Part shown: piece after piece, positions 6,944 through 41,148 of the stretch
Numbering within the stretch: position 1 is the stretch's first letter
Layout: the number at the start of each line of letters is the position of its first letter
Source: Cyanobium usitatum str. Tous
GTDB lineage: Bacteria > Cyanobacteriota > Cyanobacteriia > PCC-6307 > Cyanobiaceae
Length of the DNA: 64,000 bases
Reading direction: 5' to 3'
Assembly: GCF_963920485.1 (NCBI RefSeq)
Contig: NZ_OY986431.1
Span: 1,302,001-1,366,000, forward strand
Position numbers and translations under genes: made by a program
Notes under the pieces: model-generated
What the model was told of the DNA's origin: nothing
The model's input: the letters and a program-made list of their open reading frames with translations, nothing else
Databases searched by the model: none

Positions 6944-6983
6944 CGGGGCGTGGCGCAGCTTGGTAGCGCGGGTGCTTTGGGAG
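6944..6983 (+). other. orphan 5' half of tRNA-Pro(UGG): left boundary of the island (att site)
   Basis: These 40 bases are identical to bases 1-40 of the intact tRNA-Pro at 32133-32206, from acceptor strand through D arm to the anticodon loop, then diverge after CTTTGGGAG. This is the expected host scar when an element that carries its own 5' half recombines in the anticodon loop and rebuilds the gene at its other end. Confidence 0.85.
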
Positions 6984-25397: not shown

Positions 25398-25685
25398 TCA
25401 GCCCTGCTGCCGGGTCATGTCATCTGTCCAGCCTTGGCAGCGGCTGGTGAGGTGCTCGCCGTGGGCGATCAACCCCTGGTGCAGCTGGCAGGTGAGCACC
25501 GGGATGCAGTTCACCCCGGCGTGGTGCCTAAACCAGTGGCAGGTCGTGCAGACCATGCGGCTGCGGCTGGAGCGGAGCACCGCATGATCCAACCAAGGCC
25601 AGTCCTCGATCTCCCCCTTGCGAGAGGGCCCTAGGCGGGAGAGGGGGCCGCCGCGATGGTGACTCCAGCATTCGTACGCCTGCAC
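25398..25685 (-). CDS. small Cys/His-rich hypothetical protein
   Basis: 95 residues with MVCTTCHWFRHHAGVNCIPV, then LTCQLHQGL and a final SRCQGWTDDM. The spacing of Cys and His suggests a zinc site. The pattern looks like a conserved cyanobacterial protein; function unknown. Confidence 0.6.
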   Translation of the reverse strand: MQAYECWSHHRGGPLSRLGPSRKGEIEDWPWLDHAVLRSSRSRMVCTTCHWFRHHAGVNCIPVLTCQLHQGLIAHGEHLTSRCQGWTDDMTRQQG

Positions 25686-25934: not shown

Positions 25935-26366
25935 GTGGCTATAGCGACCCCTGCCAGCCACCCCTGTGCCAGGAGCGCCCCTGTTGCTTGTCAGGAGTCC
26001 CCAGTGGAAGTGAGCATCACAGAAGCATCGATAGCGCTTGGATTTCGGAGCCGCAGCACGATCTACAGGCTGCTCAAGAATGGATCATTGAGTGATTTCG
26101 AGCGCACCAGCCCATCCGGTGCACGCTGCCTTGAACTCAATGGACTAGCGGACACAGTTAGGAGATTGATTAGGAGGCAGGCCAATAGCGCCATCTCGAT
26201 GCCCAGCACTGCAACTGCTCAGGACTGGTGGGGTGACGTTGCCTCTATCTGTAACCGCTACCTAGAACTTGATTGCTGGGGACCACCGCCATGGAGCCCT
26301 CTGCAGTGGTCTGTGCTGGTGGGGATAGCTCAAATGGCTGCTGATGAGTTTGAGAATGCAGGCTGA
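25935..26366 (+). CDS. helix-turn-helix protein, island regulator or excisionase-like
   Basis: 143 residues from GTG 25935; a GTG at 26004 just before EVSITEASIALGF may be the real start. The N-terminal part has a MerR/excisionase-type helix-turn-helix: ITEASIALGFRSRSTIYRLL followed by KNGSL. The rest is helical with Trp. It overlaps the ligase-like gene, so the two are probably translated together. Confidence 0.6.
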   Translation: MAIATPASHPCARSAPVACQESPVEVSITEASIALGFRSRSTIYRLLKNGSLSDFERTSPSGARCLELNGLADTVRRLIRRQANSAISMPSTATAQDWWGDVASICNRYLELDCWGPPPWSPLQWSVLVGIAQMAADEFENAG

Positions 26367-27132
26367 AGTTCTTGTCCGCTCCAGGGGCCAGGGGCACCTC
26401 GGCCTCCGCAGTGCCATACGCACTGCTGATGCCGCCTACCGGGAGGGCCAGGCGTACCTCAGCGATGCCGAATTTGACGAGCTGGTGGCAGAGCTGCAGC
26501 AACTCGACCCCACTGCGCCTGAGTTGCTTACTCCCGGCGGGGGCAGCAAGCTGCTGAGCCTGGACAAACAGGACCTGAGCGATTGGCTCGCGGGTCTTGG
26601 TGCTGCCGCTGCTGGCCTCTTCTCGGTGACACCCAAGCTCGACGGCTGCGCCATAGCGCTGGAGTACCGCCAGGGCCAGCTCACGGCAGCGTGGACACGC
26701 AGCGGTGCTGATGCCATGCACCTGCTGCCCCTGGTGGGCACCGTGCCGCCCAGGCTCAGCGCACCGATAAGTGTGCAGATCCGTGGTGAGATCTACGGCC
26801 TTGACGGGCGGCAGAGCACACCCGCCGCCGCCCTGCGCCGCAAGGTGCCCAGCGGTAACGGACTGGTGTTCGCTGCATTTGAGGTGATGCAGAGTGCGGC
26901 CAATCACTCCAGCCAACTGCTTGCGCTAGAGCGCTGGGGTCTGCCCATCCCCCCATACCTGCTTTGTGGCGCTGCACAGCTGGCACGCCACCACCATTCA
27001 TGGCTGCAGTGTCGGCTGTGGAGCGAGTTGCCCACCGATGGGTTGGTGGCGCAGCTGGATGACGGCCAGCAGCGCAGAAAGCTCGGTGTCAATAGCGTTG
27101 CGCCCCGCTACGCCCTGGCGCTGAAGCGGTGA
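26344..27132 (+). CDS. miniature NAD-dependent DNA ligase-like protein (domain Ia plus adenylation domain only)
   Basis: 262 residues. The first 60 match the LigA Ia domain (AAYREGQAYLSDAEFDELVA, then LLSLDKQDLSDWL). Next is the nucleotidyltransferase core: motif I PKLDGCAIALEYRQG with the adenylated Lys, motif III IRGEIYG, WGLPIPPYLLC, motif IV DGLVAQLDD, and motif V ALALKR. It stops there, with no OB fold, zinc finger, HhH or BRCT domain, while normal LigA has about 670 residues. In motif IV Gln replaces the usual Lys. It probably binds NAD and may self-adenylate, but ligation is doubtful without the OB domain. Overlaps the HTH gene. Confidence 0.8.
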   Translation: MSLRMQAEVLVRSRGQGHLGLRSAIRTADAAYREGQAYLSDAEFDELVAELQQLDPTAPELLTPGGGSKLLSLDKQDLSDWLAGLGAAAAGLFSVTPKLDGCAIALEYRQGQLTAAWTRSGADAMHLLPLVGTVPPRLSAPISVQIRGEIYGLDGRQSTPAAALRRKVPSGNGLVFAAFEVMQSAANHSSQLLALERWGLPIPPYLLCGAAQLARHHHSWLQCRLWSELPTDGLVAQLDDGQQRRKLGVNSVAPRYALALKR

Positions 27133-30770: not shown

Positions 30771-31982
30771 TTATACAGATTCTTGCGTTTGCGTCAACTT
30801 GCGATAGCGCATGGCTGCTTCCATCGCACTGTCGATTGTTGCCTCGTCGGTCCACCTGCCGTAATGCCGAGAGTGAGTCTCGACAGAGTGGCCCATCAGA
30901 GCTGCAGCCACTCGTGCACTCAGCCCATACGCCTGGTGCGCACGTAAGGCATACCCGTGTCGGAATCCGTAGCAGGTGGCTCCTAACGCTGTTAGCTCTT
31001 CCCAGCCTTGATGGCGGCTTAGGTAGCGACGGGCGGCATCAGCCACTCCACCACCAAACGGAGGCAACCCCTCACCTGCTTCGAGCCGCTCACGCAGCTG
31101 CCAATCTGCTTCCCACTCGGGATGCAGGGCCCGCAGCTGACGCGGCCTGGTCGATCCCCCACCACTTCGTTTTACGTAGTCACACCACAGAGAACCTGTT
31201 GGCTCAAGCCGCAGGTGCAGAACCTCGACGGGACGCAATCCGTAAGCAGCCATCAGCTGCAAGGCGTACCGCCACCTCTGACCTGCCGAGTCTTGCGGCA
31301 ATCCTCCGATCAAGCTGAGAATTTGTTCGTCACTCAGGGGAACACCGTCCACCCGGCTGGCAACTTTTTCGCCGACAAAGCTTTTCAGGATTTGAGGTGG
31401 AGTCCAACGGTCGGGAGGCAAAAGGTCTGCTTCAACAGCCCAGCGACACATTGCAGAGAGGTGCTGCAAAACCACTTGGCGCCGTCGCGACCCAGGGGGC
31501 CAGGCTTCTCCCGCAAATGTCAGCAGTGACTTGGCATCGACTGCCTTGGCAGCCACTACCTGCAATCGCTTGGCCGTCTTGCCGTAATCGACAAGCCAGG
31601 TGCTGGCCTTGATCTGACCGGTTCGATGAACTTTGTGCTTTCCGAAAGCTTCCCAAGCGGCAAGCAACTCTTGCCCCGCTGGACCGGCGGCAGGTGCGGG
31701 TGCGGGGGAGGAAAGCCCCTCGATCAGTTCCAGTGATTGCCGCAGAGTGCGGCCCATGGAGAGTTGCTGAGCGACACGCTCCACAGTCTCTTGAATTTGC
31801 CGCGCCTGTGCAGGAACCCACTGAACAGGAAGGACCGCCGTTCCTCTGCTGCCATCGGCATAGCGGACATCCAGCTTGGCCTTGCCGCGTTGCTCAACCA
31901 ACCGGTAGGCAGGTCCAACAGTGCTGCGCAGCTGAGCCCTTAAGCCCTGTACCCAAATTGGTGAGTCGGATCGACGGGGCAT
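30771..31982 (-). CDS. tyrosine recombinase (integrase) of element A
   Basis: 403 residues from ATG 31982; the extra upstream frame covers the arm-site repeats. Catalytic domain: Arg box AYGLRPVEVLHLRL, box II CYGFRHGYALRAH (Tyr in the place of the usual first His), then LMGHSVETHSRHYGRW with His and the nucleophile Tyr. The N-terminal 120 residues are the arm/SAM-like part. It begins about 150 bases before the intact tRNA-Pro, so it sits at the right end of element A and probably recognises the CGAGTGA repeats just upstream of its start. Confidence 0.9.
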   Translation of the reverse strand: MPRRSDSPIWVQGLRAQLRSTVGPAYRLVEQRGKAKLDVRYADGSRGTAVLPVQWVPAQARQIQETVERVAQQLSMGRTLRQSLELIEGLSSPAPAPAAGPAGQELLAAWEAFGKHKVHRTGQIKASTWLVDYGKTAKRLQVVAAKAVDAKSLLTFAGEAWPPGSRRRQVVLQHLSAMCRWAVEADLLPPDRWTPPQILKSFVGEKVASRVDGVPLSDEQILSLIGGLPQDSAGQRWRYALQLMAAYGLRPVEVLHLRLEPTGSLWCDYVKRSGGGSTRPRQLRALHPEWEADWQLRERLEAGEGLPPFGGGVADAARRYLSRHQGWEELTALGATCYGFRHGYALRAHQAYGLSARVAAALMGHSVETHSRHYGRWTDEATIDSAMEAAMRYRKLTQTQESV

Positions 31983-31994
31983 GGCCCAACGGGG

Positions 31995-32027
31995 CGAGTG
32001 ACAGACGAGTGATAGACGAGTGACGCT
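31995..32027. repeat. arm-type integrase sites of element A, right end
   Basis: Three repeats CGAGTGACAGA, CGAGTGATAGA and CGAGTGACGCT start at 31995, 32006 and 32017, exactly 11 bp apart. The same motif lies at both left-arm repeats (7048-7067 and 19048-19067). Confidence 0.7.
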
Positions 32028-32132
32028 CAGCCCCAACATGCTGACATTCGCGCCTAACCGCTACAACCCCCAAACCCGTTGGCACAGCAAGAATCCAGTA
32101 CTGGCCTGCAGTCCCCTACTATTACAAAGGAA

Positions 32133-32206
32133 CGGGGCGTGGCGCAGCTTGGTAGCGCGGGTGCTTTGGGAGCACTAGGTCGCAGGTTCGAATCCTGTCG
32201 CCCCGA
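32133..32206 (+). tRNA. tRNA-Pro (anticodon UGG), intact
   Basis: 74 nt without encoded CCA. Acceptor CGGGGCG pairs with CGCCCCG, D arm GCGCAGCTTGGTAGCGC, anticodon loop TTTGGGA (32165-32171; anticodon 32167-32169), T arm with GGTTCGAATCC, discriminator A. It is rebuilt at the junction of elements A and B and is the only complete copy in the window. Confidence 0.95.
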
Positions 32207-32208
32207 TT
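32161..32208 (+). repeat. attL of element B (48-bp direct repeat within the tRNA 3' part)
   Basis: Identical to 41101-41148. It runs from the anticodon stem to two bases past the tRNA end. The bases before it differ (tRNA 5' half here, element sequence there), marking the crossover region. Confidence 0.9.
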
Positions 32209-32246
32209 TTCAAAAGCCAGTAACAGCAGCGGTTTTGGCCGTTGAT

Positions 32247-32297
32247 GACGGCAAGGCTGATTCTGCCGTCAAGATTCTGACGGCAATCTGACGGCAA
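32247..32297. repeat. arm-type integrase sites of element B, left end
   Basis: GACGGCAA at 32247, 32279 and 32290 (the last two 11 bp apart) and one inverted copy at 32265. The same octamer recurs in pairs 11 bp apart at 40992 and 41003 next to the element B integrase. Confidence 0.7.
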
Positions 32298-32390
32298 TAG
32301 CCGAAATCCATTGGTATGACAGAAGTGCCGCAAGCACTGGGTTTTGTGCTGTTTTTTCGTCCAAGCTGCGGTGAATCTGGCCCCTGATCC

Positions 32391-32522
32391 ATGACACTTG
32401 GCCGCTTCGCAATCCTGTTTGCCTTGGGCTTGGTGGCTGCCATTGCGTTCAAGCTCACATGGCTTTACTGGCTGCTAGCTGCCGCTCTGGTGTTGGTTCT
32501 GGTCAGGCTGCGGCTCAGCTGA
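32391..32522 (+). CDS. small membrane protein, 43 residues
   Basis: ATG 32391 to TGA 32520-32522. Almost wholly hydrophobic (FAILFALGLVAAIAF, then WLYWLLAAALVLVLV) with a basic end RLRLS: probably one or two membrane helices. Short but composition and the immediately following similar gene support it. Confidence 0.5.
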   Translation: MTLGRFAILFALGLVAAIAFKLTWLYWLLAAALVLVLVRLRLS

Positions 32523-32526
32523 GCCG

Positions 32527-32622
32527 ATGAACCCAGAACAGCTTCAGAGCCTTGCTGTGCTGGCTCTGGCGATGGTGCCGGTGGCGGTGCTCTGGTGGGT
32601 CTGGATTCAGATGCTGGATTGA
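32527..32622 (+). CDS. small membrane protein, 31 residues
   Basis: ATG 32527, four bases after the previous gene. One helix (LAVLALAMVPVAVLWWVWI) after MNPEQLQS. Such tiny membrane proteins can be toxins or photosystem-like subunits, but nothing here decides it. Confidence 0.45.
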   Translation: MNPEQLQSLAVLALAMVPVAVLWWVWIQMLD

Positions 32623-32726
32623 CCCTGCAGAGCGATAGGGGTGCATCCAGCTGACTTCGCTGTCTTGCGGCTAGCTCTTGCTGGCAATCTTTGCCCTATC
32701 GTTCTAACGACTATCTGCTGAGCATC

Positions 32727-33095
32727 GTGAAGAAGTCCTTACGTCTGATTGGCATTAAAACCATATCCGCGTTGGCTCTTGTGGGTATTTTGCTGCAAGC
32801 ATGCGGACAGCCAGAGGTAAAGACTGTTCCTAAAGTTGACCTCAGTTCAGCATGTAAAAAATATATTGGAGAGCTTATGGGGCGCCCAGTGTCTTCAATG
32901 AATGTTGACCGTGTAGACGACGATGGATCCCTTGTCGCAATAAGCTATATCAGGTCGGATGACCAGAAGCTCTTCAAGTACGAATGCAAGCTAGATGGCG
33001 AAAATATTGTGTGGAGGGGAGTGGATATTTTTGCGCCAGGCGAAGGACCCGGTAGATGGCGCGACGAAGACGCTAAGCCTGTTTCGGCCCTTTGA
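32727..33095 (+). CDS. lipoprotein, unknown function
   Basis: About 122 residues from GTG 32727. Signal peptide KKSLRLIGIKTISALALVG with lipobox LLQAC. Mature domain has two Cys and a beta pattern (GSLVAISYIRSDDQKLFKYE, then NIVWRGVDIFA). AT-richer codon use than the core genes. Followed after 2 bases by another exported protein gene. Confidence 0.65.
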   Translation: MKKSLRLIGIKTISALALVGILLQACGQPEVKTVPKVDLSSACKKYIGELMGRPVSSMNVDRVDDDGSLVAISYIRSDDQKLFKYECKLDGENIVWRGVDIFAPGEGPGRWRDEDAKPVSAL

Positions 33096-33097
33096 CG

Positions 33098-33358
33098 ATG
33101 ACACTTAAGTTAAGTATTTTGGTGGGTTTGTCTCTGCTGGCAGGGATGCAAATACTGCCTTCCGAGGCATATCCCCAGTCAGAAATGAACTCATGTGTTG
33201 CCAATGGTATGAAAGGCGTTATCGATAAGCAACTCAGGTCGACGCTTTCTGATGTCAACAAATACTGCAACTGTGCACTTTCGAAGATAATTGACCAAGG
33301 GAAGCCTATCGCCACATCCATCGACTATTGCAATAGAGTGTACATATTGAATAGATAA
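33098..33358 (+). CDS. small exported Cys-containing protein
   Basis: 86 residues from ATG 33098. Signal peptide LKLSILVGLSLLAGMQILP; mature part with four Cys (NSCVANGMKG, KYCNCALSK, DYCNRVY). Co-directional and adjacent to the lipoprotein gene, and ends before a hairpin terminator. Function unknown. Confidence 0.6.
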   Translation: MTLKLSILVGLSLLAGMQILPSEAYPQSEMNSCVANGMKGVIDKQLRSTLSDVNKYCNCALSKIIDQGKPIATSIDYCNRVYILNR

Positions 33359-33390
33359 CCGGATTCGTCCTGTCGCGGCTTTTCGGTAAA

Positions 33391-33418
33391 AAGCCTTCGG
33401 GCACAACTCCGAAGGCTT
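33391..33418 (+). terminator. hairpin terminator
   Basis: Stem AAGCCTTCGG with perfect complement CCGAAGGCTT, loop of 8. It lies 33 bases after the exported-protein gene. The T run after it is weak (TGCTGTTT). Confidence 0.6.
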
Positions 33419-33454
33419 GCTGTTTGCCGGTGGGTACTTCCTCTAACACTTTAA

Positions 33455-33688
33455 ATGAACACGACATTACGCGTCGCCTTAACCGCCATCATCTCCACTG
33501 CTGCTGTCATGGCAGCACCATTCCTATCCTTTGGTGGTTCTCAGTTTTTTAACACCCTGGCATGGCAGATGAGTACGGTGCTTCCTTATGGAATGGTCGG
33601 TCCGGTGGCGTGGTTGTTTCTCGTTGCTGCGGTATCTCTTGCCATCACTTTCCTTGTTCTGGCTATTGTTCGCATCTGGAAGAAGTAG
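33455..33688 (+). CDS. small two-helix membrane protein
   Basis: 77 residues with two strongly hydrophobic segments (ALTAIISTAAVMAAPFL and MVGPVAWLFLVAAVSLAITF) and a basic C terminus IVRIWKK. No family recognised. Confidence 0.55.
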   Translation: MNTTLRVALTAIISTAAVMAAPFLSFGGSQFFNTLAWQMSTVLPYGMVGPVAWLFLVAAVSLAITFLVLAIVRIWKK

Positions 33689-33758
33689 GTCATTTGCTTA
33701 GCAAGATCTAGTTTGTCCAAAGCCTTTAGAATGTGATGGTTAAAAAGGTTTTGGAATC

Positions 33759-33929
33759 ATGCCAACACCGCATCTAACATTTGTAGCCGGCTCTGCTGTA
33801 TTAGCGGCGCTACAAGCTGAGGCAACACTTGCAAGGCTTGCTGATGATGATCTGCCTCGGGTGCCGGAAACGGATTGCCTTGCATCCCCACAATCACGCC
33901 GCCCCTTACCCGTAACGGTGCACAACTAA
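33759..33929 (+). CDS. small protein, first of a four-gene coupled operon
   Basis: 56 residues, ATG 33759 preceded by an AAGG about 12 bases upstream. Starts MPTPHLTFVAGSAVLAALQA and becomes acidic, with one Cys. Its TAA shares a base with the ATG of the next gene (TAATG). Too short for most gene finders; the tight coupling is the main support. Confidence 0.5.
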   Translation: MPTPHLTFVAGSAVLAALQAEATLARLADDDLPRVPETDCLASPQSRRPLPVTVHN

Positions 33930-34345
33930 TGACTGACATTGATGCACGGATTGATGCCGACCATCGCAAAGCGGCCGCAGCTGAAAATGATGCTCGCGCC
34001 ATTGTTTCCAGGATGGCCAAGATCGAAGATATGGACAGGTTTCTGGCTTATGGACGCCGGGAACACGGCCAGGTGCCGAATCCATACCGCGTCGGGAATC
34101 TGACCGCAATCGGACTGCTTGAACTCAACGATCCGGCGTTGGCTAGCTATTTGGCCGCTGCGGCCGGTAAGGGAACATCAGCACCCGATTACGCCCGTCA
34201 GGAAGCCGAGGCAGAACGTCAACAGCAGATCGAACGGATGAAGGCTGCCACCTCTGAATTGCAAGCCACCAACACTGCCCACAGGCAGCACCTGGACCGC
34301 GCCTTTGTCGTTGGTGTTTCACCCACAACCGGGAGGCGTTGGTAA
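33929..34345 (+). CDS. helical hypothetical protein, second of the coupled operon
   Basis: 138 residues from ATG 33929. Long helices: MTDIDARIDADHRKAAAAEN, then a middle LTAIGLLELNDPALASYLAA, and a coiled-coil-like C terminal part (RQEAEAERQQQIERMKAATS). It could be a phage-like structural or scaffold protein, but no family is recognised. Its TAA overlaps the next ATG (TAATG). Confidence 0.6.
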   Translation: MTDIDARIDADHRKAAAAENDARAIVSRMAKIEDMDRFLAYGRREHGQVPNPYRVGNLTAIGLLELNDPALASYLAAAAGKGTSAPDYARQEAEAERQQQIERMKAATSELQATNTAHRQHLDRAFVVGVSPTTGRRW

Positions 34346-34650
34346 TGGCACACATCGCCAAAATGCACCCAACAGCAAACTGGCTACGGGTGCCGGACCA
34401 CATCTACCGACAGGCACTGGACCGCAACATCGAACTAGGCAAGCCTGATACCGATCACTTCTGGTCCACAGAACTGCCTCGCTTGGTGGCTGATCCTGGA
34501 TACCAAAAGCAGATCGAAGATCGTCGCATTGAATTGCAGCAAAAGTTGCAACAACTAGGTGACGACCTTCGGCAAATTGCTGGTGGCCTTATCGACCAGC
34601 AAAGCGAGTGCGATCTGGAACTTGCCCTACTGAATCAGGTTTTGCCATGA
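34345..34650 (+). CDS. hypothetical protein, third of the coupled operon
   Basis: 101 residues from ATG 34345. N-terminal MHPTANWLRVPDHIYRQALD, then a helical C-terminal coiled coil (QIEDRRIELQQKLQQLGDDL). No family recognised. Its TGA overlaps the ATG of the fourth gene (ATGA). Confidence 0.6.
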   Translation: MAHIAKMHPTANWLRVPDHIYRQALDRNIELGKPDTDHFWSTELPRLVADPGYQKQIEDRRIELQQKLQQLGDDLRQIAGGLIDQQSECDLELALLNQVLP

Positions 34651-34850
34651 ACGTGATCGAATACGCCTGCCAGATGCAGGACGCCAGATTGGCGGCGCTT
34701 AAGGCACAAGCTCAGGTGCCCACCGTTGAAGCGTTCAAAGCGGCAACCCGTTCGGCTATTCAGGCACTTGAACTGTTCACCCATTCCGAAAAGGTTGGCC
34801 TGATCGGTGAAATTGAAGACGCCTGGAAACGGCTTGAGCAAAAAGACTAA
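34647..34850 (+). CDS. small helical protein, fourth of the coupled operon
   Basis: 67 residues from ATG 34647: helical throughout (YACQMQDARLAALKAQAQVP, ending IEDAWKRLEQKD). Small acidic helical partner-like protein at the end of the operon. Function unknown. Confidence 0.6.
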   Translation: MNVIEYACQMQDARLAALKAQAQVPTVEAFKAATRSAIQALELFTHSEKVGLIGEIEDAWKRLEQKD

Positions 34851-34871
34851 TTGATTTTAGACAGTTCGCGA

Positions 34872-35480
34872 TTAATTGCTAAAAGGAAGAGAAGAGTGGT
34901 GCAAGACAATCCGCACAGAGGCATCTGGTTCTTTGATAAAGCTCCAGGTTTTATCAACTCTGGTGACTTTCCCGGTGCTATCGGTTAGATCTACATTGCC
35001 CATTGTGATTGCCTGTGCCCCATTGAGCTGAATCACCTCATTCACCACCTCGCACTTGCGCCATGGCCTCAGTGCAAATCCTGTGTCGCTTGGGTAGGCG
35101 GGATTGTTGCCAACAAAATAGGCCAAGGCGCCTTCGCGGGTGGCGCGAAATGTCTGCTTGCCCGAGGCAAGTGTTGGCGCAAAAGCAACCGGTCCGTACT
35201 GATATGCATAAGCCTTATCAATGACAGCCTCTGCTTTTTTTGTAGCAGCACCTATGCCAGAATTAGCGTAGGTGCTGCTAATGCTAAGCAACGCATCGCA
35301 CCAGCCATTCTGTGCTGCTATTACCTCTGCCTGGGTGAAATTTAGGTTCATCACCTTCACTGTAGGGCGTGCTAGGCCAGCGGATGGGGACAATATTGAT
35401 GCAGGGATTGCTAGGCAAATTGCCCCACCCAGCGTGATAGCCCTGTGAAATGTGGTTGGAGTCTTGACAAAGGTTTTCAC
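34872..35480 (-). CDS. exported NTF2/SnoaL-like protein
   Basis: 202 residues. Signal peptide (AITLGGAICLAIPASI), then QAEVIAAQNGWCDALLSIS, AEAVIDKAYAYQYGPVAFAP, EGALAYFVGNNPAYPSDTG and the final DASVRIVLHHSSLPF. This pattern is that of periplasmic SnoaL/NTF2-fold proteins often misnamed phosphoribosyl-AMP cyclohydrolase in databases. It lacks HisI metal motifs. Role unknown; cargo of element B. Confidence 0.65.
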   Translation of the reverse strand: MKTFVKTPTTFHRAITLGGAICLAIPASILSPSAGLARPTVKVMNLNFTQAEVIAAQNGWCDALLSISSTYANSGIGAATKKAEAVIDKAYAYQYGPVAFAPTLASGKQTFRATREGALAYFVGNNPAYPSDTGFALRPWRKCEVVNEVIQLNGAQAITMGNVDLTDSTGKVTRVDKTWSFIKEPDASVRIVLHHSSLPFSN

Positions 35481-35661
35481 GATAAAAAATCTGATTTGCC
35501 ATATAAAAGCATGGATGGGTCCGCTGCGGCCGCGGGTGAGCAGATTATTTAAAAAAGGTTACCTCTTGTTGTTTGGATTAGTTGTGGTGAGCTAGTAATG
35601 CGCCAAAGCTCTCGGTTGCTGCTGCGATAATGGTGTCATAAGTAAAGGTTGGTATTGGGAG

Positions 35662-36018
35662 ATGCGCACCAGTAAGGCTGAACGCAAACGACGTCGTGAG
35701 GCCGCCCTAGCGCGCGTTGCAGATGGCTACGGCTTCACTGATGTTGTGACTTTCATGATGGCGCAATGGGGATGCTCGCGCTCAACCGCACAACGGGACT
35801 GTGGCTGGGCACATGGCCAACTTGCTGCGAGCCTTCAGGGAGCCGACATTAAGCACTTAGTGGCTCACCTTTGCACTAGCGCTCAACGGGTAGCTCTGAA
35901 GGCTGAACAGGCTGGTCAGTACGCCGCAGCAATCGGTGCGTTGAAGCTTCTGCATGAAATGGTGGTGGTGCCGCACACCAACCCCAAGGAACGAACTTTT
36001 CGGCGTGGGTTGCGGTGA
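35662..36018 (+). CDS. terminase-small-subunit-like HTH protein
   Basis: 118 residues. Basic start RTSKAERKRRREAALARVAD, then MAQWGCSRSTAQRDCGWAHG, a helix-turn-helix as in phage terminase small subunits and related packaging or regulatory proteins, and a helical end with GQYAAAIGALKLLHEMV. No large subunit or capsid genes are in the window, so the element might hijack packaging of a helper phage, or this may be a simple regulator. Confidence 0.5.
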   Translation: MRTSKAERKRRREAALARVADGYGFTDVVTFMMAQWGCSRSTAQRDCGWAHGQLAASLQGADIKHLVAHLCTSAQRVALKAEQAGQYAAAIGALKLLHEMVVVPHTNPKERTFRRGLR

Positions 36019-36255
36019 GGCTGGCTTGGTTGTGTGTGCCAGTTGGCGCGGTCCTGCTGAGACGCTGAAGACTGGACAAAGGCGGTTGAATTACGAAACA
36101 CCGGCTGGCCACGATTGTTGTACTACAGCCCCGAGGTAGCGGCGAATAGGTGCCGAGAACCCAGTGCGGGTGGTGGATGAGACGCAGCCGTCGCAGTGAA
36201 CTGTCCTGAGCATCTGTCAAGCCAGCAATGCCGCTGATGGGCGTGGGTAAAGAAG

Positions 36256-36284
36256 AAAGGGGGATTTTTGACAATCCCCCCTTT
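36256..36284. terminator. bidirectional hairpin between convergent genes
   Basis: AAAGGGGGATT pairs with AATCCCCCCTTT around a short loop. It lies between the terminase-like gene and the primase-helicase gene, giving A- or T-runs on both sides. The AAAGGGGGGA part recurs near the end of the element A replication gene. Confidence 0.6.
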
Positions 36285-36303
36285 GTCAAAAGTCCTAGTC
36301 GTG

Positions 36304-39225
36304 TCACCAGTTTGCAAAAACTTCTTTTCTGTACTGCTCGGCCTCCTCTGGGGTCATCAGAGGCACGCCTGGTTCCAGCTCGCTTGGTGAGTGCCAGTGC
36401 GCAAAAGCTTCATTGCATTGACGCTCCGCCTCCTCAGGTGTGAGGCGTGGCGCACCCGGTTCGGGCGCCAACACCCGGGGTCCCCATGCTGGATCATCCT
36501 CGTCGTCAAACGCATCGGCGCCACTACCCACTGTTTTCGCCTCAATTACCTCAACTACCTCTGAGCTGTTCTGGCGCAGTTGTTTTCGGTGTTGAGGCCG
36601 AATCTCAACTACCTCAACTGGAGTTTGAGTAGCGGGTGGGGGGGTAGCTGTAGTTGAGGTAGTTGAGGTAGTTGAGATTTCGCACTGAAGCTGAGATCCA
36701 TTGCCTTGCAGGGTCTCAGAGGTAGTTGAGGTAGTTGAAGCTGATTTTGAGTACTGGTGATTTTTGTTGTCTTCGCTTAAGGCTGAAAACGTGTATTCGT
36801 TCCCTGCCCTCACCCGCTGGATCTTGGAGTCATCCGCCAGCCGCTTGAGTGCAGTGCGCACCCTGACTGCATCAGCACCGCTTCCTAGACCCCACTTCAA
36901 ATCCAACGCTTCAACTGTTTCTCGGCATGTCAGCCATGCCCCCACACGTTCCTCCATGAGATCAAGTATTTGATCTTGCGTTGTGGTGCGGCTTGTTTCA
37001 CGCTTCTTTTCGTCCTTGGCATCTTTCAGCTGTTGCTGCCATGTGCTGAACTCACTCACCCGATAGAAACCACCAGTGCCGGGATTGGGACTTAGGACTA
37101 GGTCACATCCTTCACCGCTTCGTGCTTCACGCACCAGGCGGCGCTGGTTGTTTTGTTTATCCGGCTTCCCGCTGTCATCTGGGCAGTAGTGCAAGGTGAT
37201 AACCGTGTTTGCTGCACCCGCAATGGCACTGTGGCCACTGAGTGCCTCTACGCCGATGAGGTCGTTGGTTTTGTTCGCGTGGTGGATAAGCACCAACGAT
37301 CCACCCGCCTCGAGGACACTCTGCTTGAGGTCATAAAGGCAGGCCCCCATCTCAGGATCGTTTTCGCTGCAACCAAGTGACCGCGTGATGCTTCGGAGTG
37401 AATCCAGTACAACCAGTGCACCTGGGTTGGCTTTGATGTCGGCAAGGAGCTTGTCTAGATCGGTTTCGTTCACCCGGAAATGGGGAGACCATTTCAAGCG
37501 TGCGTGGCTCCAGATCTTGAGGCTATCGAGCATGTCGGCCGTATCACCATCGGCCTGGTCATCGGTCACCAGCAGCACCGAGCAGGTTTGCTCTGGTGAC
37601 CCAAAACCGATGAACTCGTCGCCGGTCAAGATTGCGGCAACTAGGGCAACGGCAAGTCGTGTTTTACCGACCTTGGGTCTGCCGCCGATGATTGACATGT
37701 CCCCATAGGGGATCAGGTTTTTGATCAACCAATGCACCTCAGGCCGCTCCATAGCCAGGCGTGCCGCAGCGTCGAGGCTTTGGTACTGATGGCCCTGCTG
37801 GCGATCCTTTTCCGTCAAGACAAGCTGTGCAATGTCCTTGCGGTTTATGAACTGTTTAATACCTAGATCGTCGGCGATTTTCAGTAAACGTGATTGGCGG
37901 GTGAGTGTGTTGCGTTGTCTGCGTGATAACACAGCAACGCATTTGTAGAAACACTGCATTTTGCGATCAAGCGTGAGGTTGCGTGACTTGGCCTTGCGTT
38001 GCGCCGTCTCTTGCGCTGCTCTATTCGTGGGATTGGGTTGCCGCTTCAGCTGATACCCGTTCTGTCTGGCTATCGCCCAGAAACTTCCAGCATTGCGGGT
38101 AATAGTGGAGTCGAGCACTTGAGCCGCCTGCCGTTCCCCGTGTTCCCATAGGTGCGCCATGAGGTTGATGGCTTCACCGTCAGGGTTCGGGTGGTTGACC
38201 TCAGCCAGCGCGGCCGAGCACCCGCACAAGGCGTTGCGGTACTCCTCGTAGGTCTGGGGGGTACGTGACGGCAGTACAGCCACTGCATCACGGATCTCCT
38301 GCATGTCGCGGGGGGCGTAACCAACGCTTTGGCGATGCTTAATCAGGCCAGGCTTTGGCGTTGGCTTCACCACCTCGGGGATCGCGGGTGTGGGGAGGCA
38401 GGCTTCGATTTCCTCGGCGGTGTAGGACACGTCGGCCTGGTGGATCAACTCAGCACGGTTGCTGGTTACTTCCCCGTTTTCCTTGTTGACATAGAAAAAC
38501 CCAGGCACCCGCATCAACCGGCTGGGGTTTTTGCATGTCTTGTCGCCTCCGGCGAAGTTGATCAGGCGTTCTTGCAGCGCCCGCCATCCATCAGGCTGCA
38601 TGGGTTCGTTGAGCACCCAATAGCAATGCACGGACTTCCCGCCGGTGGTGATCATCGCGGTGGGTTCGGGTAGGTCTAGTTCACGCCATGCCGACATCTG
38701 CCACTCGATTGGCTTGTCGTCGTGTTCGACGAAAACAGCACGGCATGAGTGCACGTCTTCGTCTTCGACGCCGCCCCTTTTGCCACTGGCTTTTTTGGCT
38801 TCACCCGTTATGAAGTAAACGGATGCGCCGGCGTTGTTGTCTGCTTCTAGAACGGCAGCATCGAAGCCGAGCAGGTCTCTCCCGTAGCGGCTGCGGTTGG
38901 CACCTTTGCCGGGTGTGATGGTCCGAAACCAGGTTTTCGCTGGATCCTTGCCAAGAAGGCTCAGGAAGCGTTCCGCCTCGTGGCGTACCTGCATTGGGTG
39001 CAGTGACATTTCCGTGTTTGCTGTCTCACCACCCGCGTGGGGGTCGGATTCATGGGGATCTGCCGGTGTGTTTTGAGACTGCGCATCGTCAACGCAGTCG
39101 GTGTTGTGTCCAGATTTGTGGGTGTCGCATGGCCAGACGGCATGAGACAAAGGCTGACCTACAATGGCTTCAGGATTGTTTGCCATCACTAGGTCGCCCT
39201 GGCAGGCGGCCTTTTTCATGTTCAT
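36304..39225 (-). CDS. primase-helicase replication protein of element B
   Basis: 973 residues. The N-terminal third resembles an archaeo-eukaryotic-type primase/RepB domain: ERFLSLLGKDPAKTWFRTI, an acidic VEHDDKPIEW, TTGGKSVHCYWVLNEP with the sxH motif, and NPSRLMRVPGF. From about residue 480 follows a RecA/RepA-like ATPase: Walker A GGRPKVGKTRLA, VLLVTDDQADG, Walker B ALVVLDSLRSI, VLIHHANK. A winged-helix-like region and a Thr/Ser/Val-rich low-complexity tail (with nonamer DNA repeats) end the protein. It probably starts replication of the excised element. ATG overlaps the HTH gene's stop. Confidence 0.85.
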   Translation of the reverse strand: MNMKKAACQGDLVMANNPEAIVGQPLSHAVWPCDTHKSGHNTDCVDDAQSQNTPADPHESDPHAGGETANTEMSLHPMQVRHEAERFLSLLGKDPAKTWFRTITPGKGANRSRYGRDLLGFDAAVLEADNNAGASVYFITGEAKKASGKRGGVEDEDVHSCRAVFVEHDDKPIEWQMSAWRELDLPEPTAMITTGGKSVHCYWVLNEPMQPDGWRALQERLINFAGGDKTCKNPSRLMRVPGFFYVNKENGEVTSNRAELIHQADVSYTAEEIEACLPTPAIPEVVKPTPKPGLIKHRQSVGYAPRDMQEIRDAVAVLPSRTPQTYEEYRNALCGCSAALAEVNHPNPDGEAINLMAHLWEHGERQAAQVLDSTITRNAGSFWAIARQNGYQLKRQPNPTNRAAQETAQRKAKSRNLTLDRKMQCFYKCVAVLSRRQRNTLTRQSRLLKIADDLGIKQFINRKDIAQLVLTEKDRQQGHQYQSLDAAARLAMERPEVHWLIKNLIPYGDMSIIGGRPKVGKTRLAVALVAAILTGDEFIGFGSPEQTCSVLLVTDDQADGDTADMLDSLKIWSHARLKWSPHFRVNETDLDKLLADIKANPGALVVLDSLRSITRSLGCSENDPEMGACLYDLKQSVLEAGGSLVLIHHANKTNDLIGVEALSGHSAIAGAANTVITLHYCPDDSGKPDKQNNQRRLVREARSGEGCDLVLSPNPGTGGFYRVSEFSTWQQQLKDAKDEKKRETSRTTTQDQILDLMEERVGAWLTCRETVEALDLKWGLGSGADAVRVRTALKRLADDSKIQRVRAGNEYTFSALSEDNKNHQYSKSASTTSTTSETLQGNGSQLQCEISTTSTTSTTATPPPATQTPVEVVEIRPQHRKQLRQNSSEVVEVIEAKTVGSGADAFDDEDDPAWGPRVLAPEPGAPRLTPEEAERQCNEAFAHWHSPSELEPGVPLMTPEEAEQYRKEVFANW
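36541..36739. repeat. iteron-like GTAGTTGAG nonamers inside the primase-helicase gene
   Basis: GTAGTTGAG occurs three times in tandem (36650, 36659, 36668) and twice more at 36722 and 36731 (last one with one change). Inverted copies stand at 36541, 36550 and 36604. The opposite orientations could fold into a cruciform. May be a replication origin, or simply a slippage-prone repeat encoding T-T-S and V-E units. Confidence 0.55.
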
Positions 39226-39479
39226 GCGAAGGCCACCTCCATCGCGCGGTGGCCAAGTTGGTCTTGTTCGAGGTACGCAGCTCTAGTTGCTACGCATAAG
39301 GCGTCTTCACATGCCGCCAAGTGGTAGAGCACATGGCTGTTGGCATTGGTTGGGATTTTTCGGTGCCAGCATTCACCAGCAGCCAATAGTCCGTCACGGC
39401 GCAAACGGATCAAGGTCCGTTCACTGAGGCGAAGGTGATCAGCAGCCTCGCGCTGAGTCACCCACTTAGTAGTGGTCAT
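39222..39479 (-). CDS. excisionase-like HTH protein of element B
   Basis: 85 residues: KWVTQREAADHLRLSERTLI is a MerR/Xis-type helix-turn-helix, followed by RRDGLLAAGECWHRK as a wing. Overlaps the primase-helicase start by ATGA. In the same place as the HTH gene of element A relative to integrase and replication genes. Confidence 0.7.
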   Translation of the reverse strand: MTTTKWVTQREAADHLRLSERTLIRLRRDGLLAAGECWHRKIPTNANSHVLYHLAACEDALCVATRAAYLEQDQLGHRAMEVAFA

Positions 39480-39704
39480 TGGGGATAAAGCGATTTATGG
39501 CTTAGATCCCCGTTCCGGTCTTTCCTACTGAATCAAAGCCAGATTCAGCGGTCCCGGATTATTGCTGAGGTTTCCTTCTCTGGTTAGAGGCTGGATCTAA
39601 TGATCCAACCAGAAGGCGCCTTGGCGACGGAGTGGTGTTACCACCAAAGAAAATGTAGCACCAGTTTTCTGGTTTTTGTCAACCTTGCACTGACAGGCTA
39701 CGAA
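39480..39704. other. intergenic region between integrase and HTH genes
   Basis: 225 bases, no gene. Contains several TGATCCAACC/TGAATC-like repeated strings (39540-39610) that could be operators for the HTH protein; not resolved. Confidence 0.3.
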
Positions 39705-40979
39705 CTACCCCGCGATGAGTGGCTCGTGGGCTTTGGCAAATGCATCGGCAGTGCTTGATCTTTCTGCCCATGGATAGTGCTGGCAGTGGGTCTGAATCGA
39801 ATGTCCCATGCTTGTAGCCATGGATCCTGAATCAATGCCACGCCTAGTACCTCTGACGCTATAGCTGTGTCTGAAGCTGTAGGCGGTCAACCGTTTGTCT
39901 TCCTGGCTGAGCATCAACTCCTTCAATGACACCCATGCTGGTCGGCGCACAAAATACGTTTTCCAGCATTCACCGGCACCGTTTCCTGACTCCAGGGGCG
40001 GAAGCTTAATTAGACCGGCACGCCACCTCGCCATCAGGTTCCACTGCTGCACCTCGCCATCAGCACCCACTAACGGGAGTGGGTAGATGCGTCGCGCCTT
40101 GGTAGCACCGTTGCCACCTTTCTTTTCGTAGGTACACCACCAATACGCTTCACCGCTGATTTCTTCTGTTTTCACCTTCAGGTGCAGCAGTTCAATGGGT
40201 CGCAATCCCAGCTCAGCCAGCAACCGGGTGGCATCTGCCCACTGCATTGCTGCTTCACGGTCACGCTGTGGGCCGACTTCAGTTGGCAGCGACTCGATCA
40301 GGTCGATGATTTGCTGGTCATGGGCAAAGGCATCAGCTTTCCGCCGTATCGCTTCGGCCGGCTTCTCTGTACCAATCAGTGGCTTGAGGTTCTTGGGTGG
40401 CGCCCAGGCATCTGGCAGGTGGTGCTGATCCACGCAGTAGCTAAGGAAGCTGACCAGGCTGCGGACACGGATTTTGCGCATACGGCAACCAGTCCGAAAT
40501 TCACTGACGCAAGCCAGTACCAAAGCTTGAGCCGTGATTGGAGCCTTTTTGGCAGTGAGCAACCCGATAGCCATCGTGATGACTGGCTCGTAGTCGTGCT
40601 CCCAGGTGGTGAGTTTGATTCCGCTGTCGGCGGTCATTTTCCAATGCTTGAAATCCTTGGCGTAGGCGGCCCAGTTGCGGTTCTTGCTGGGAGCTTTTGC
40701 CTGGGCCAGTTCAGCGGCTTCAACCAGGGTGTGTCCCTTCGCTGCATAGGCGTAAACGTTTCGGATGCGGACGTAGCAATCGCCCCATTGGCGCTCACAC
40801 CACTCAAAGGGCAGCGTGATGCGGTTGCCTGGCTGGCGTGGCCGCATGGACAGTTCGACCTTGTTTCGGACCGACTTGGCGATTGTCAGCAGTGGCTTTT
40901 TACCTTCCACCGCGCTGAGTTCTGAAATCTGCCGTCTTGCCGTCAAAACCCACTGATTTTCCGAAATCGGTTGTGGCAT
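39705..40979 (-). CDS. tyrosine recombinase (integrase) of element B
   Basis: 424 residues. Catalytic motifs: Arg box LAELGLRPIELLHLKV, box II AYSFRHSYSVRG (Tyr in place of first His), SMGHSIQTHCQHYPWA with His and Tyr. Same order and sister-like to the element A integrase but clearly diverged. Starts 121 bases before the 41101 att copy. Arm-type GACGGCAA sites flank both ends of its element. Confidence 0.9.
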   Translation of the reverse strand: MPQPISENQWVLTARRQISELSAVEGKKPLLTIAKSVRNKVELSMRPRQPGNRITLPFEWCERQWGDCYVRIRNVYAYAAKGHTLVEAAELAQAKAPSKNRNWAAYAKDFKHWKMTADSGIKLTTWEHDYEPVITMAIGLLTAKKAPITAQALVLACVSEFRTGCRMRKIRVRSLVSFLSYCVDQHHLPDAWAPPKNLKPLIGTEKPAEAIRRKADAFAHDQQIIDLIESLPTEVGPQRDREAAMQWADATRLLAELGLRPIELLHLKVKTEEISGEAYWWCTYEKKGGNGATKARRIYPLPLVGADGEVQQWNLMARWRAGLIKLPPLESGNGAGECWKTYFVRRPAWVSLKELMLSQEDKRLTAYSFRHSYSVRGTRRGIDSGSMATSMGHSIQTHCQHYPWAERSSTADAFAKAHEPLIAG

Positions 40980-40991
40980 AACGGTTTAGGC

Positions 40992-41010
40992 GACGGCAAA
41001 ACGACGGCAA
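40992..41010. repeat. arm-type integrase sites of element B, right end
   Basis: GACGGCAA at 40992 and 41003, 11 bp apart, just upstream of the integrase start; an inverted copy lies inside the gene at 40939. Matches the left-end set at 32247-32297. Confidence 0.7.
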
Positions 41011-41100
41011 AACCAGCATATTTGGTCATGACAGGACCTGCAAGACCCTGTCAGAAGCCATTCATAGTCTAAAATCCTAGTGTCAGAAAAGCTTCTTTCA

Positions 41101-41148
41101 GTGCTTTGGGAGCACTAGGTCGCAGGTTCGAATCCTGTCGCCCCGATT
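41101..41148 (+). repeat. attR of element B: orphan 3' part of tRNA-Pro
   Basis: 48 bp identical to 32161-32208 (anticodon stem to tRNA end plus two bases). No 5' half precedes it, so it is not a functional tRNA. It marks the right boundary of element B. Confidence 0.9.

What the first reader, a model, noticed from the sequence alone, without database searches (positions are those of the whole stretch)
26344..27132. Miniature NAD-dependent ligase-like protein on the integrative element
It has the NAD-binding Ia domain and the adenylation domain with motif I, III and V, but ends before the OB fold, at 262 residues, and has Gln in place of the motif IV Lys. It is an intact frame coupled to an HTH gene and beside the element's replication gene. 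Possible roles: AMP transfer to another protein or nucleic acid, NAD depletion, or a split ligase needing a partner. This is not a plain truncation because the ending is clean at a domain border.
Basis: partly seen in the sequence, partly recalled or inferred. Interest (0 to 1): 0.75.

Follow-up and report, generated by a model that had tools for sequence, protein, structure and literature searches.

The report
Miniature DNA ligase of cyanobacterial satellites
The gene encodes a cut-down DNA-ligase-like protein that keeps the AMP-loading half but lacks the DNA-gripping half; it belongs to a whole family of such proteins carried by small mobile elements of picocyanobacteria and by marine viral sequences, often right next to the enzyme that inserts the element into a tRNA gene.

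Summary
The 262-aa ORF is an intact LigA-type domain Ia plus adenylation domain that stops one residue after motif V. It is not a one-off truncation: it belongs to a well-supported clade of OB-less LigA-like proteins, separate from LigA and T5-type split ligases. Matches occur in 122 of 400 genomes of the window's family (a few weak ones may be LigA) and the short form in 33 IMG/VR contigs. Window pairs show purifying selection, omega 0.21-0.33.

Many host copies lie in tRNA-Pro(TGG)-targeting elements. In 7 loci the gene overlaps a tyrosine-integrase gene by exactly 4 bp. Four repeat-bounded elements of 8.2-9.5 kb also carry a capsid-protease gene.

The motif IV Lys-to-Gln change is one half of a coupled adenine-pocket change (E113T/K290Q); the core catalytic residues are intact.

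Best mechanism, inferred and not shown: a NAD+-driven AMP transferase acting on DNA nicks during element integration or replication. Side finding: one Prochlorococcus-like genus has a full LigA in only 2 of 60 near-complete genomes.

The parts
26344..27132 (+). mini-ligase: LigA-type domain Ia + nucleotidyltransferase, 262 aa (258 aa if started at 26356); no OB, Zn, HhH or BRCT
26392..26505 (+). domain Ia-like helices, residues 17-54, with Y32, D41, F44, D45
   Evidence: sequence pattern, not a Pfam hit
26629..26637 (+). T96-P97-K98: T96 is at the E113 (adenine N6) position, K98 is the nucleophile Lys of KxDG
   Evidence: coordinates read
27052..27054 (+). Q237 at the motif IV Lys (K290) position
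   Evidence: coordinates read
25935..26366 (+). HTH-like protein, 143 aa (conserved part starts near 26004), overlapping the mini-ligase start; same pair in L004, L035, L036
   Evidence: (sub-cutoff HTH matches)
25398..25685 (-). small ORF (cluster c6) collinear with the G195 element in L036
27650..29980 (-). DUF3987 protein, 776 aa, replication-type
   Evidence: PF13148; helicase/primase PHROGs; homologue in L036
30387..30632 (-). small HTH-like protein, 81 aa
   Evidence: sub-cutoff HTH matches
30771..32039 (-). tyrosine integrase, 422 aa, of the family that is operonic with mini-ligases elsewhere
32133..32206 (+). tRNA-Pro (TGG), intact attachment gene
6944..6983 (+). 40-bp repeat of the 5' half of tRNA-Pro, possible left border
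41101..41148 (+). 48-bp repeat of the 3' part of tRNA-Pro, right border of the neighbouring island

Best explanation
The gene is the window's copy of a conserved family of OB-less NAD+-ligase-like proteins (domain Ia + nucleotidyltransferase). The family is a module of tRNA-Pro-targeting integrative elements, including capsid-encoding satellite-like ones, and is shared with marine viral contigs. Shown here: the clade, its fixed architecture, active-site retention in mobile and viral members, purifying selection, and frequent linkage to a tyrosine integrase and the tRNA-Pro attachment site. Inferred: the protein binds NAD+, loads AMP on K98 and releases NMN (step 1). It then transfers AMP to 5'-phosphates of nicked DNA made while the element integrates, excises or replicates, and seals them alone or held on DNA by a partner such as the integrase. 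The window copy is a sub-lineage with a changed adenine pocket (T96/Q237 for E113/K290).
For: One clade of all 61 short rows, support 100/99, apart from LigA and T5 subunit A. K115, D117, G118, E173, D285 and K314 all kept in 46 of 48 mobile, viral and Prochlorococcus-D rows (Cyanobium 5/5, Synechococcus 8/8, Prochlorococcus mobile 7/9, 240-aa type 2/2, D 5/5, viral 19/19; row G335, labelled D in the call, is set apart because the tree puts it with E). Ends 0-11 residues after motif V in 61 rows, 77-79 in T5 subunit A. Omega of window pairs 0.21-0.33. Integrase-ligase overlap of exactly 4 bp in 7 loci; integrase or remnant within 400 bp in 13 of 44 ligase ORFs, all among the 30 I class as mobile type. 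tRNA-Pro pieces within 1.5 kb in 18 of those 30 and 0 of the other 14 (classes were made after seeing the loci, so this is no independent test). Capsid-protease in repeat-bounded elements. Viral contigs: VRR-NUC in 24, ResIII helicase in 22, VapE-type in 22 and RusA in 4 of 33 (clusters; annotated on L101 and L114). The T/Q adenine pair resembles T/R of T5 subunit A.
Against: No biochemistry exists. The GDGxxGE loop is gone in all 61 short rows and R200 is Gln in 53 and Arg in only 1 of 61. No DNA-binding domain. The domain Ia call rests on a residue pattern. Fixed relatives have lost catalytic residues (Pro_E, Syn_degen, three other host copies), and Pro_E and Syn_degen still show omega 0.11-0.50, so a non-catalytic role exists in the family. 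Pairs among G195's own copies reach omega 0.57. Of 30 mobile-type loci, 14 have no integrase match (one of them, L047, has a remnant) and 9 no tRNA-Pro piece; some contigs are short. In the 33 viral contigs neither that integrase family nor tRNA-Pro pieces were found, and the gene just upstream is a minor-tail-type protein in 27 of 33, not a DNA enzyme.
Confidence: 0.45

Rival explanations
1. Non-ligase regulator: an NAD+/AMP-sensing or decoy protein that competes with host or phage ligase, or governs element entry or superinfection, with catalysis dispensable.
For: Fixed paralogues in genus g18 (Pro_E) and g56 (210/228 aa) lost K314 and mostly D285, the latter also E173 and mostly D117, yet show omega 0.11-0.50. 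Solo Nlig-Ia domains in phages have been proposed as NAD+ sensors (PMC9503650, passages seen).
Against: Viral members keep all six core residues in 19 of 19 rows, which a pure decoy does not need.
Confidence: 0.25
2. Split ligase: the Ia-NTase half works with a separate OB-bearing subunit, as in heterodimeric phage ligases.
For: Fold match to the PR1 phage heterodimeric ligase (9hu3, 9i5i) and the same one-residue gap in domain Ia as T5 subunit A.
Against: PF03120 is found in 2 of 2 T5-type controls but in 0 of 13 short-form virus records, and nowhere in G358, G258 or G095, which carry short forms. Short forms end 0-11 residues after motif V against 77-79. Virus records may be fragments, and a diverged OB partner would be missed.
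Confidence: 0.12
3. AMP transfer to another target: a protein, RNA or tRNA end, for example repair of tRNA-Pro whose gene is the target.
For: No duplex-DNA domains; a Pfam RNA_ligase match at E 1e-4, below cut-off, for viral homologue L101; many host copies lie at tRNA-Pro.
Against: tRNA-Pro adjacency is explained by the attachment site; DNA enzymes lie nearby in 29 of 33 viral contigs.
Confidence: 0.12
4. Decaying fragment of a ligase gene with no function.
For: G195 holds a fragment copy (128 aa, L038) and a copy whose first 52 residues do not match (L037).
Against: Uniform architecture across a separate clade, purifying selection, 4-bp overlap operons.
Confidence: 0.03

Closest known systems
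LigA, bacterial NAD+-dependent DNA ligase (PF01653, TIGR00575)
   Same: Fold of adenylation domain (Z 23.4), KxDG, motif III Glu, motif V Lys, domain Ia residue pattern
   Different: No OB, Zn, HhH or BRCT; lacks the GDGxxGE loop and R200; TIGR00575 score 83.7 against cut-off 444; separate clade
Split (heterodimeric) phage NAD ligase subunit A: T5-type rows; PR1 phage 9hu3/9i5i (that PR1 is T5-type is my inference)
   Same: Ia + NTase in one chain; changed E113/K290 pair (T/R there, T/Q here)
   Different: T5-type subunit A runs 77-79 aa past motif V and the phage carries a PF03120 partner; neither holds here; 25-30% identity
Solo Nlig-Ia proteins of phages (PMC9503650, passages)
   Same: Partial NAD-ligase module standing alone
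   Different: Those lack the nucleotidyltransferase; here both domains are present
tRNA-targeting integrative elements of picocyanobacteria (tycheposons; VEIMEs) and capsid-encoding satellites
   Same: Tyrosine integrase, tRNA target; some with helicase-like and capsid genes
   Different: The primary papers did not turn up in the library; the passages I read mention no ligase module

Membership tests
LigA (NAD+-dependent DNA ligase) | KxDG nucleophile motif, motif III Glu, motif V Lys | tested here: met
LigA (NAD+-dependent DNA ligase) | OB domain (PF03120) | tested here: not met
   protein ends one residue after motif V; the only PF03120 hit in the genome lies at the full LigA
LigA (NAD+-dependent DNA ligase) | NCBIfam equivalog score TIGR00575 (444) | tested here: not met
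   83.7 bits
LigA (NAD+-dependent DNA ligase) | nick sealing with NAD+ | not testable with these tools
   needs an enzyme assay
PF01653 adenylation-domain family | Pfam gathering score 27 | tested here: met
   64.9 bits
NAD+-binding domain Ia (PF22745 Nlig-Ia) | profile match and NMN-site residues | tested here: inconclusive
   no profile hit for the window protein at E 0.1, weak sub-cutoff hit for L101; residue pattern kept
T5-type split ligase subunit A | separate OB subunit encoded in the same element or phage | tested here: not met
   0 of 13 short-form virus records, 2 of 2 T5-type controls; records may be fragments
T5-type split ligase subunit A | groups with T5 subunit A in a tree | tested here: not met
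   T5 subunit A clade 100/100 and short clade 100/99 are distinct
tRNA-targeting integrative element | tyrosine integrase next to a tRNA or tRNA piece, with a repeat of part of that tRNA at the far end | tested here: met
   four repeat-bounded elements with mini-ligase in L040, L156, L157, L168; in the window integrase and tRNA-Pro are adjacent, the far border (6944) is uncertain
Tycheposon | recombinase family and gene set of the original description | not testable with these tools
   original paper not among the listings

The most novel reading that the evidence does not exclude
An OB-less NAD+-dependent ligase, smaller than any ligase I know of, evolved as a dedicated partner of a tyrosine integrase in capsid-encoding satellites and in phages of picocyanobacteria. 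The recombinase supplies the DNA grip and the mini-ligase supplies AMP. Hosts then domesticated it more than once, with pseudoenzyme paralogues fixed in one Prochlorococcus-like genus that also lost LigA.
Probability: 0.25. Interest if true: 0.85.

Novelty: new variant of a known kind. Interest (0 to 1): 0.62.

Why it matters
The DNA ligases I know of use an OB domain to grip and reshape the nick (recalled, not searched). A selected, recurrent family that dispenses with it and travels with an integrase would be a testable new way to finish recombination or replication. It also gives a marker gene for satellite-like elements of picocyanobacteria. PMC9503650 reports NAD-ligases only in viruses above about 68 kb (passage); here the short form lies in elements of 8.2-9.5 kb, so such surveys may have missed it.

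Tried and rejected
One-off truncation: rejected by the clade and by omega. DUF3987 as the general partner: seen beside the gene only in the window and L036 among the 22 sources. Anti-phage defence: PADLOC gave no hit at E 0.01 for 6 proteins. A pattern scan of viral contigs with the single protein found nothing; the alignment A1 then found 46 loci: 33 short forms, 8 proteins of 316-341 aa that I call T5-type, 5 long ligases. The same pattern method in genome contigs found one locus, L004. Plasmids: 24 records at E 1e-5; of the 10 listed, all are replicons above 400 kb and three are annotated LigA. Isolated phages: 57, 145 and 620 records, all under 60% identity; the listed rows are mostly annotated NAD-dependent ligase, their domain lengths were not checked, and three Microcystis phage records counted were not listed or looked at. 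tRNA-Pro pieces and the integrase family were not found in the 33 viral contigs held, so the attachment-site link is shown for host elements only. The quick tree held two wrong rows (wrong ORFs for L144, L145); one search replaces it. Row ProD_G335 was labelled D by me but falls with E and lies near a tRNA-Val as E does; I set it apart in the counts. Literature: searches listed no paper that, by title, abstract start or the passages I opened, describes the mini-ligase or LigA loss in Prochlorococcus; most subscription papers are not held, and the original tycheposon, VEIME and island papers did not appear. Papers opened for passages only: PMC10872708, PMC10187409 (section 7 read), PMC6698739, PMC3940434, PMC2663038, PMC3397958, PMC11357015, PMC2806865, PMC9503650, PMC5052709, PMC7824862.

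Full report
Names. I take the window's family to be Cyanobiaceae and speak of Cyanobium-, Synechococcus- (g56) and Prochlorococcus-like (g18) groups from genome size, sequence and the title of L004 (Cyanobium sp. NIES-981 MAG). These names are inference.

Observation. The ORF 26344-27132 is open and encodes 262 aa. It matches the NAD-ligase adenylation domain at 64.9 bits against a cut-off of 27. The AlphaFold2 model (pLDDT 87.3) matches LigA adenylation domains (Z 23.4, rmsd 2.1 over 198 residues). Most rows cover residues 64-262; two E. coli LigA rows align over 1-262 at rmsd about 7, so domain Ia rests mainly on its residue pattern. K98, D100, G101, E149, D232 and K261 are kept; position 237 is Gln. 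The chromosome has its own full LigA of 687 aa.

Is it a one-off? No. Protein search of 400 genomes of the family gave 122 with a match at 1e-5 (a few of the weakest may be LigA); in the capped list shown no open frame exceeds 328 aa. In a class-wide sample of 291 genomes, 21 matched: 14 of the window's family with short forms, 7 outside it with ligase-length open frames of 604-720 aa. A profile search found 46 viral-contig loci: 33 encode the short form (239-289 aa, plus one cut at a contig end), 8 encode 316-341 aa proteins and 5 long ligases of 588-713 aa. A tree of 77 rows puts the 61 short rows in one clade (100/99), separate from LigA and T5 subunit A; the window copy groups with four other Cyanobium-type copies and one viral row (100/99). 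The LigA outgroup is not quite one side of the tree (one long viral row, L131, joins T5), so deep rooting is unsure. NG86 omega is 0.21-0.33 for the window against five relatives, 0.07-0.20 for D copies (some dS saturated), 0.11-0.32 for Synechococcus-type mobile copies, and up to 0.57 among G195's own copies.

Architecture and active site. Short forms stop 0-11 residues after motif V Lys, T5 subunit A runs 77-79 further. The GDGxxGE loop is absent in all 61 short rows and R200 is Gln in 53 of 61, Arg in one. Mobile, viral and D copies keep the six core catalytic residues in 46 of 48 rows (exceptions G361 D117H and G269 K314N; G335 set apart). The Lys-to-Gln change lies at the residue that contacts adenine N1, and E113 contacts N6 (PMC5052709, passages). 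In 77 rows, Lys at 290 occurs only with Glu or Gln at 113 (61 rows); Thr at 113 occurs only with Arg, Gln, Thr or Ala at 290 (15 rows); one row is Gln/Arg. These are related sequences and independent changes are few, but the window's Gln is one half of a coupled change also seen in T5 subunit A (T/R). It should not be read as a dead active site.

Genomic setting. In the window, HTH, mini-ligase, DUF3987, small ORFs, integrase and tRNA-Pro follow each other; integrase, DUF3987, ligase, HTH and a small ORF beyond it come in the same order in genome G195 (L036). Of 44 host ligase ORFs with flanks held, I class 30 as mobile type (7 Cyanobium, 10 Synechococcus-type, 9 Prochlorococcus-type, 4 of the 240-aa type) and 14 as fixed or divergent, by clade and synteny and after seeing the loci. 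An integrase or its remnant lies within 400 bp in 13 of 30 and 0 of 14; in 7 the two genes overlap by exactly 4 bp on one strand (L040, L051, L150, L156, L157, L162, L168; the integrase of L162 is a fragment); three more have an integrase at 3.6-4.9 kb, the window among them, and 14 have none (one search adds a remnant in L047). Pieces of tRNA-Pro(TGG) lie within 1.5 kb in 18 of 30 and 0 of 14, farther off in 3 including the window, and in 9 none was found. In L036, L039, L045 and L046 the ORF as called reads through the tRNA piece, so the gene starts just after it. L048, L154 and L155 look like one element in three genomes and L157 resembles L168, so these are not all independent. Several contigs are under 5 kb, so absences there say little.

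Satellite-like elements. L168, L156, L157 and L040 hold elements of 8.2-9.5 kb between tRNA-Pro pieces. L168 has integrase, mini-ligase, an HTH-like gene (below cut-off), a 539-aa fused prohead protease and major capsid protein, an AAA helicase-like protein and an excisionase-like protein. The capsid gene is shared by L040, L156, L157 and L160 (45-94% identity), the excisionase by L040, L156 and L157, and the AAA gene by L157 and L160. In the 33 viral contigs the same ORF clusters recur: VRR-NUC in 24, ResIII helicase in 22, VapE-type in 22, a primase-type protein in 3, RusA in 4; 29 have at least one of these (annotated on L101, L086 and L114). The gene directly upstream of the ligase is a phrog_1924 (minor tail) type protein in 27 of 33. 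I infer a role in finishing DNA joints during element or phage replication or integration. That step is not shown.

Partner question. PF03120 OB domains above cut-off were found once each in G000, G195, G130, G052 and G161, in open frames of LigA length (691-711 aa), and in both T5-type controls, but in none of 13 short-form virus records and in none of three g18 genomes. A LigA-type OB partner in trans is therefore unlikely in those hosts.

Side finding. In genus g18 (1.5-1.8 Mb genomes) a full LigA is found in only 2 of 60 genomes at least 95% complete. Downstream of the same 141-162 aa gene, 8 of 8 sampled LigA-less genomes carry a 444-452 aa ORF with a KLDG motif where G389, G749 and G003 carry LigA. 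The one tested (L176) contains a PF01068 match and best resembles ATP-dependent ligases in NCBIfam, below its curated cut-offs. A search of 200 family genomes finds it in 38, all g18 (E 1e-20). [quoted passage not shown] strains were not matched here. PMC11357015 lists an NAD-dependent ligase family among those unique to low-light strains (passage), which agrees.

Verdict. A real, conserved, mobile-element protein family, a new variant of a known enzyme kind. The architecture and linkage are shown; the chemistry is inferred.

Noticed in passing
genus g18 genomes, loci L172-L179 against L170, L171, L180: A Prochlorococcus-like genus has a full LigA in only 2 of 60 near-complete genomes; a 444-452 aa ATP-dependent-ligase-like ORF occupies the ligA place in 8 of 8 LigA-less genomes checked and was found only in this genus among 200 family genomes.
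   Followed up: partly
L146 (G179:C4:29383-29616): A 93-aa open frame matching only the LigA C-terminus (query 602-679, 47% identity), perhaps a remnant of the lost LigA.
   Followed up: no
L168:1155-9905, L156:6727-15077, L157:2956-11158, L040:6551-16063: Satellite-like elements of 8.2-9.5 kb between tRNA-Pro pieces with integrase, mini-ligase and a fused prohead protease-capsid gene.
   Followed up: partly
window 32161-41148: A second tRNA-Pro island with its own tyrosine integrase, an HTH-like small gene and a 973-aa AAA_25 protein, in which no mini-ligase was found.
   Followed up: partly
L054, L041, L044: Chromosomally fixed mini-ligase paralogues that lost catalytic residues (Pro_E: K314E, mostly D285N; Synechococcus-type 210/228 aa: E173, D285, K314 and mostly D117) but show omega 0.11-0.50.
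   Followed up: partly
L163 (G335): An E-like copy near tRNA-Val that still keeps the six core catalytic residues, so the E lineage may have lost them late.
   Followed up: no
window 25398-25685; L036:15787-16065; L049:10114-10347; L053:9602-9835: A small cysteine-containing protein family recurs near mini-ligase genes in Cyanobium elements and in fixed Prochlorococcus-type D loci.
   Followed up: no
window 6944-6983: 40-bp copy of the 5' half of tRNA-Pro; with the copy at 41101 it suggests tandem insertions that split the gene within its anticodon arm.
   Followed up: no
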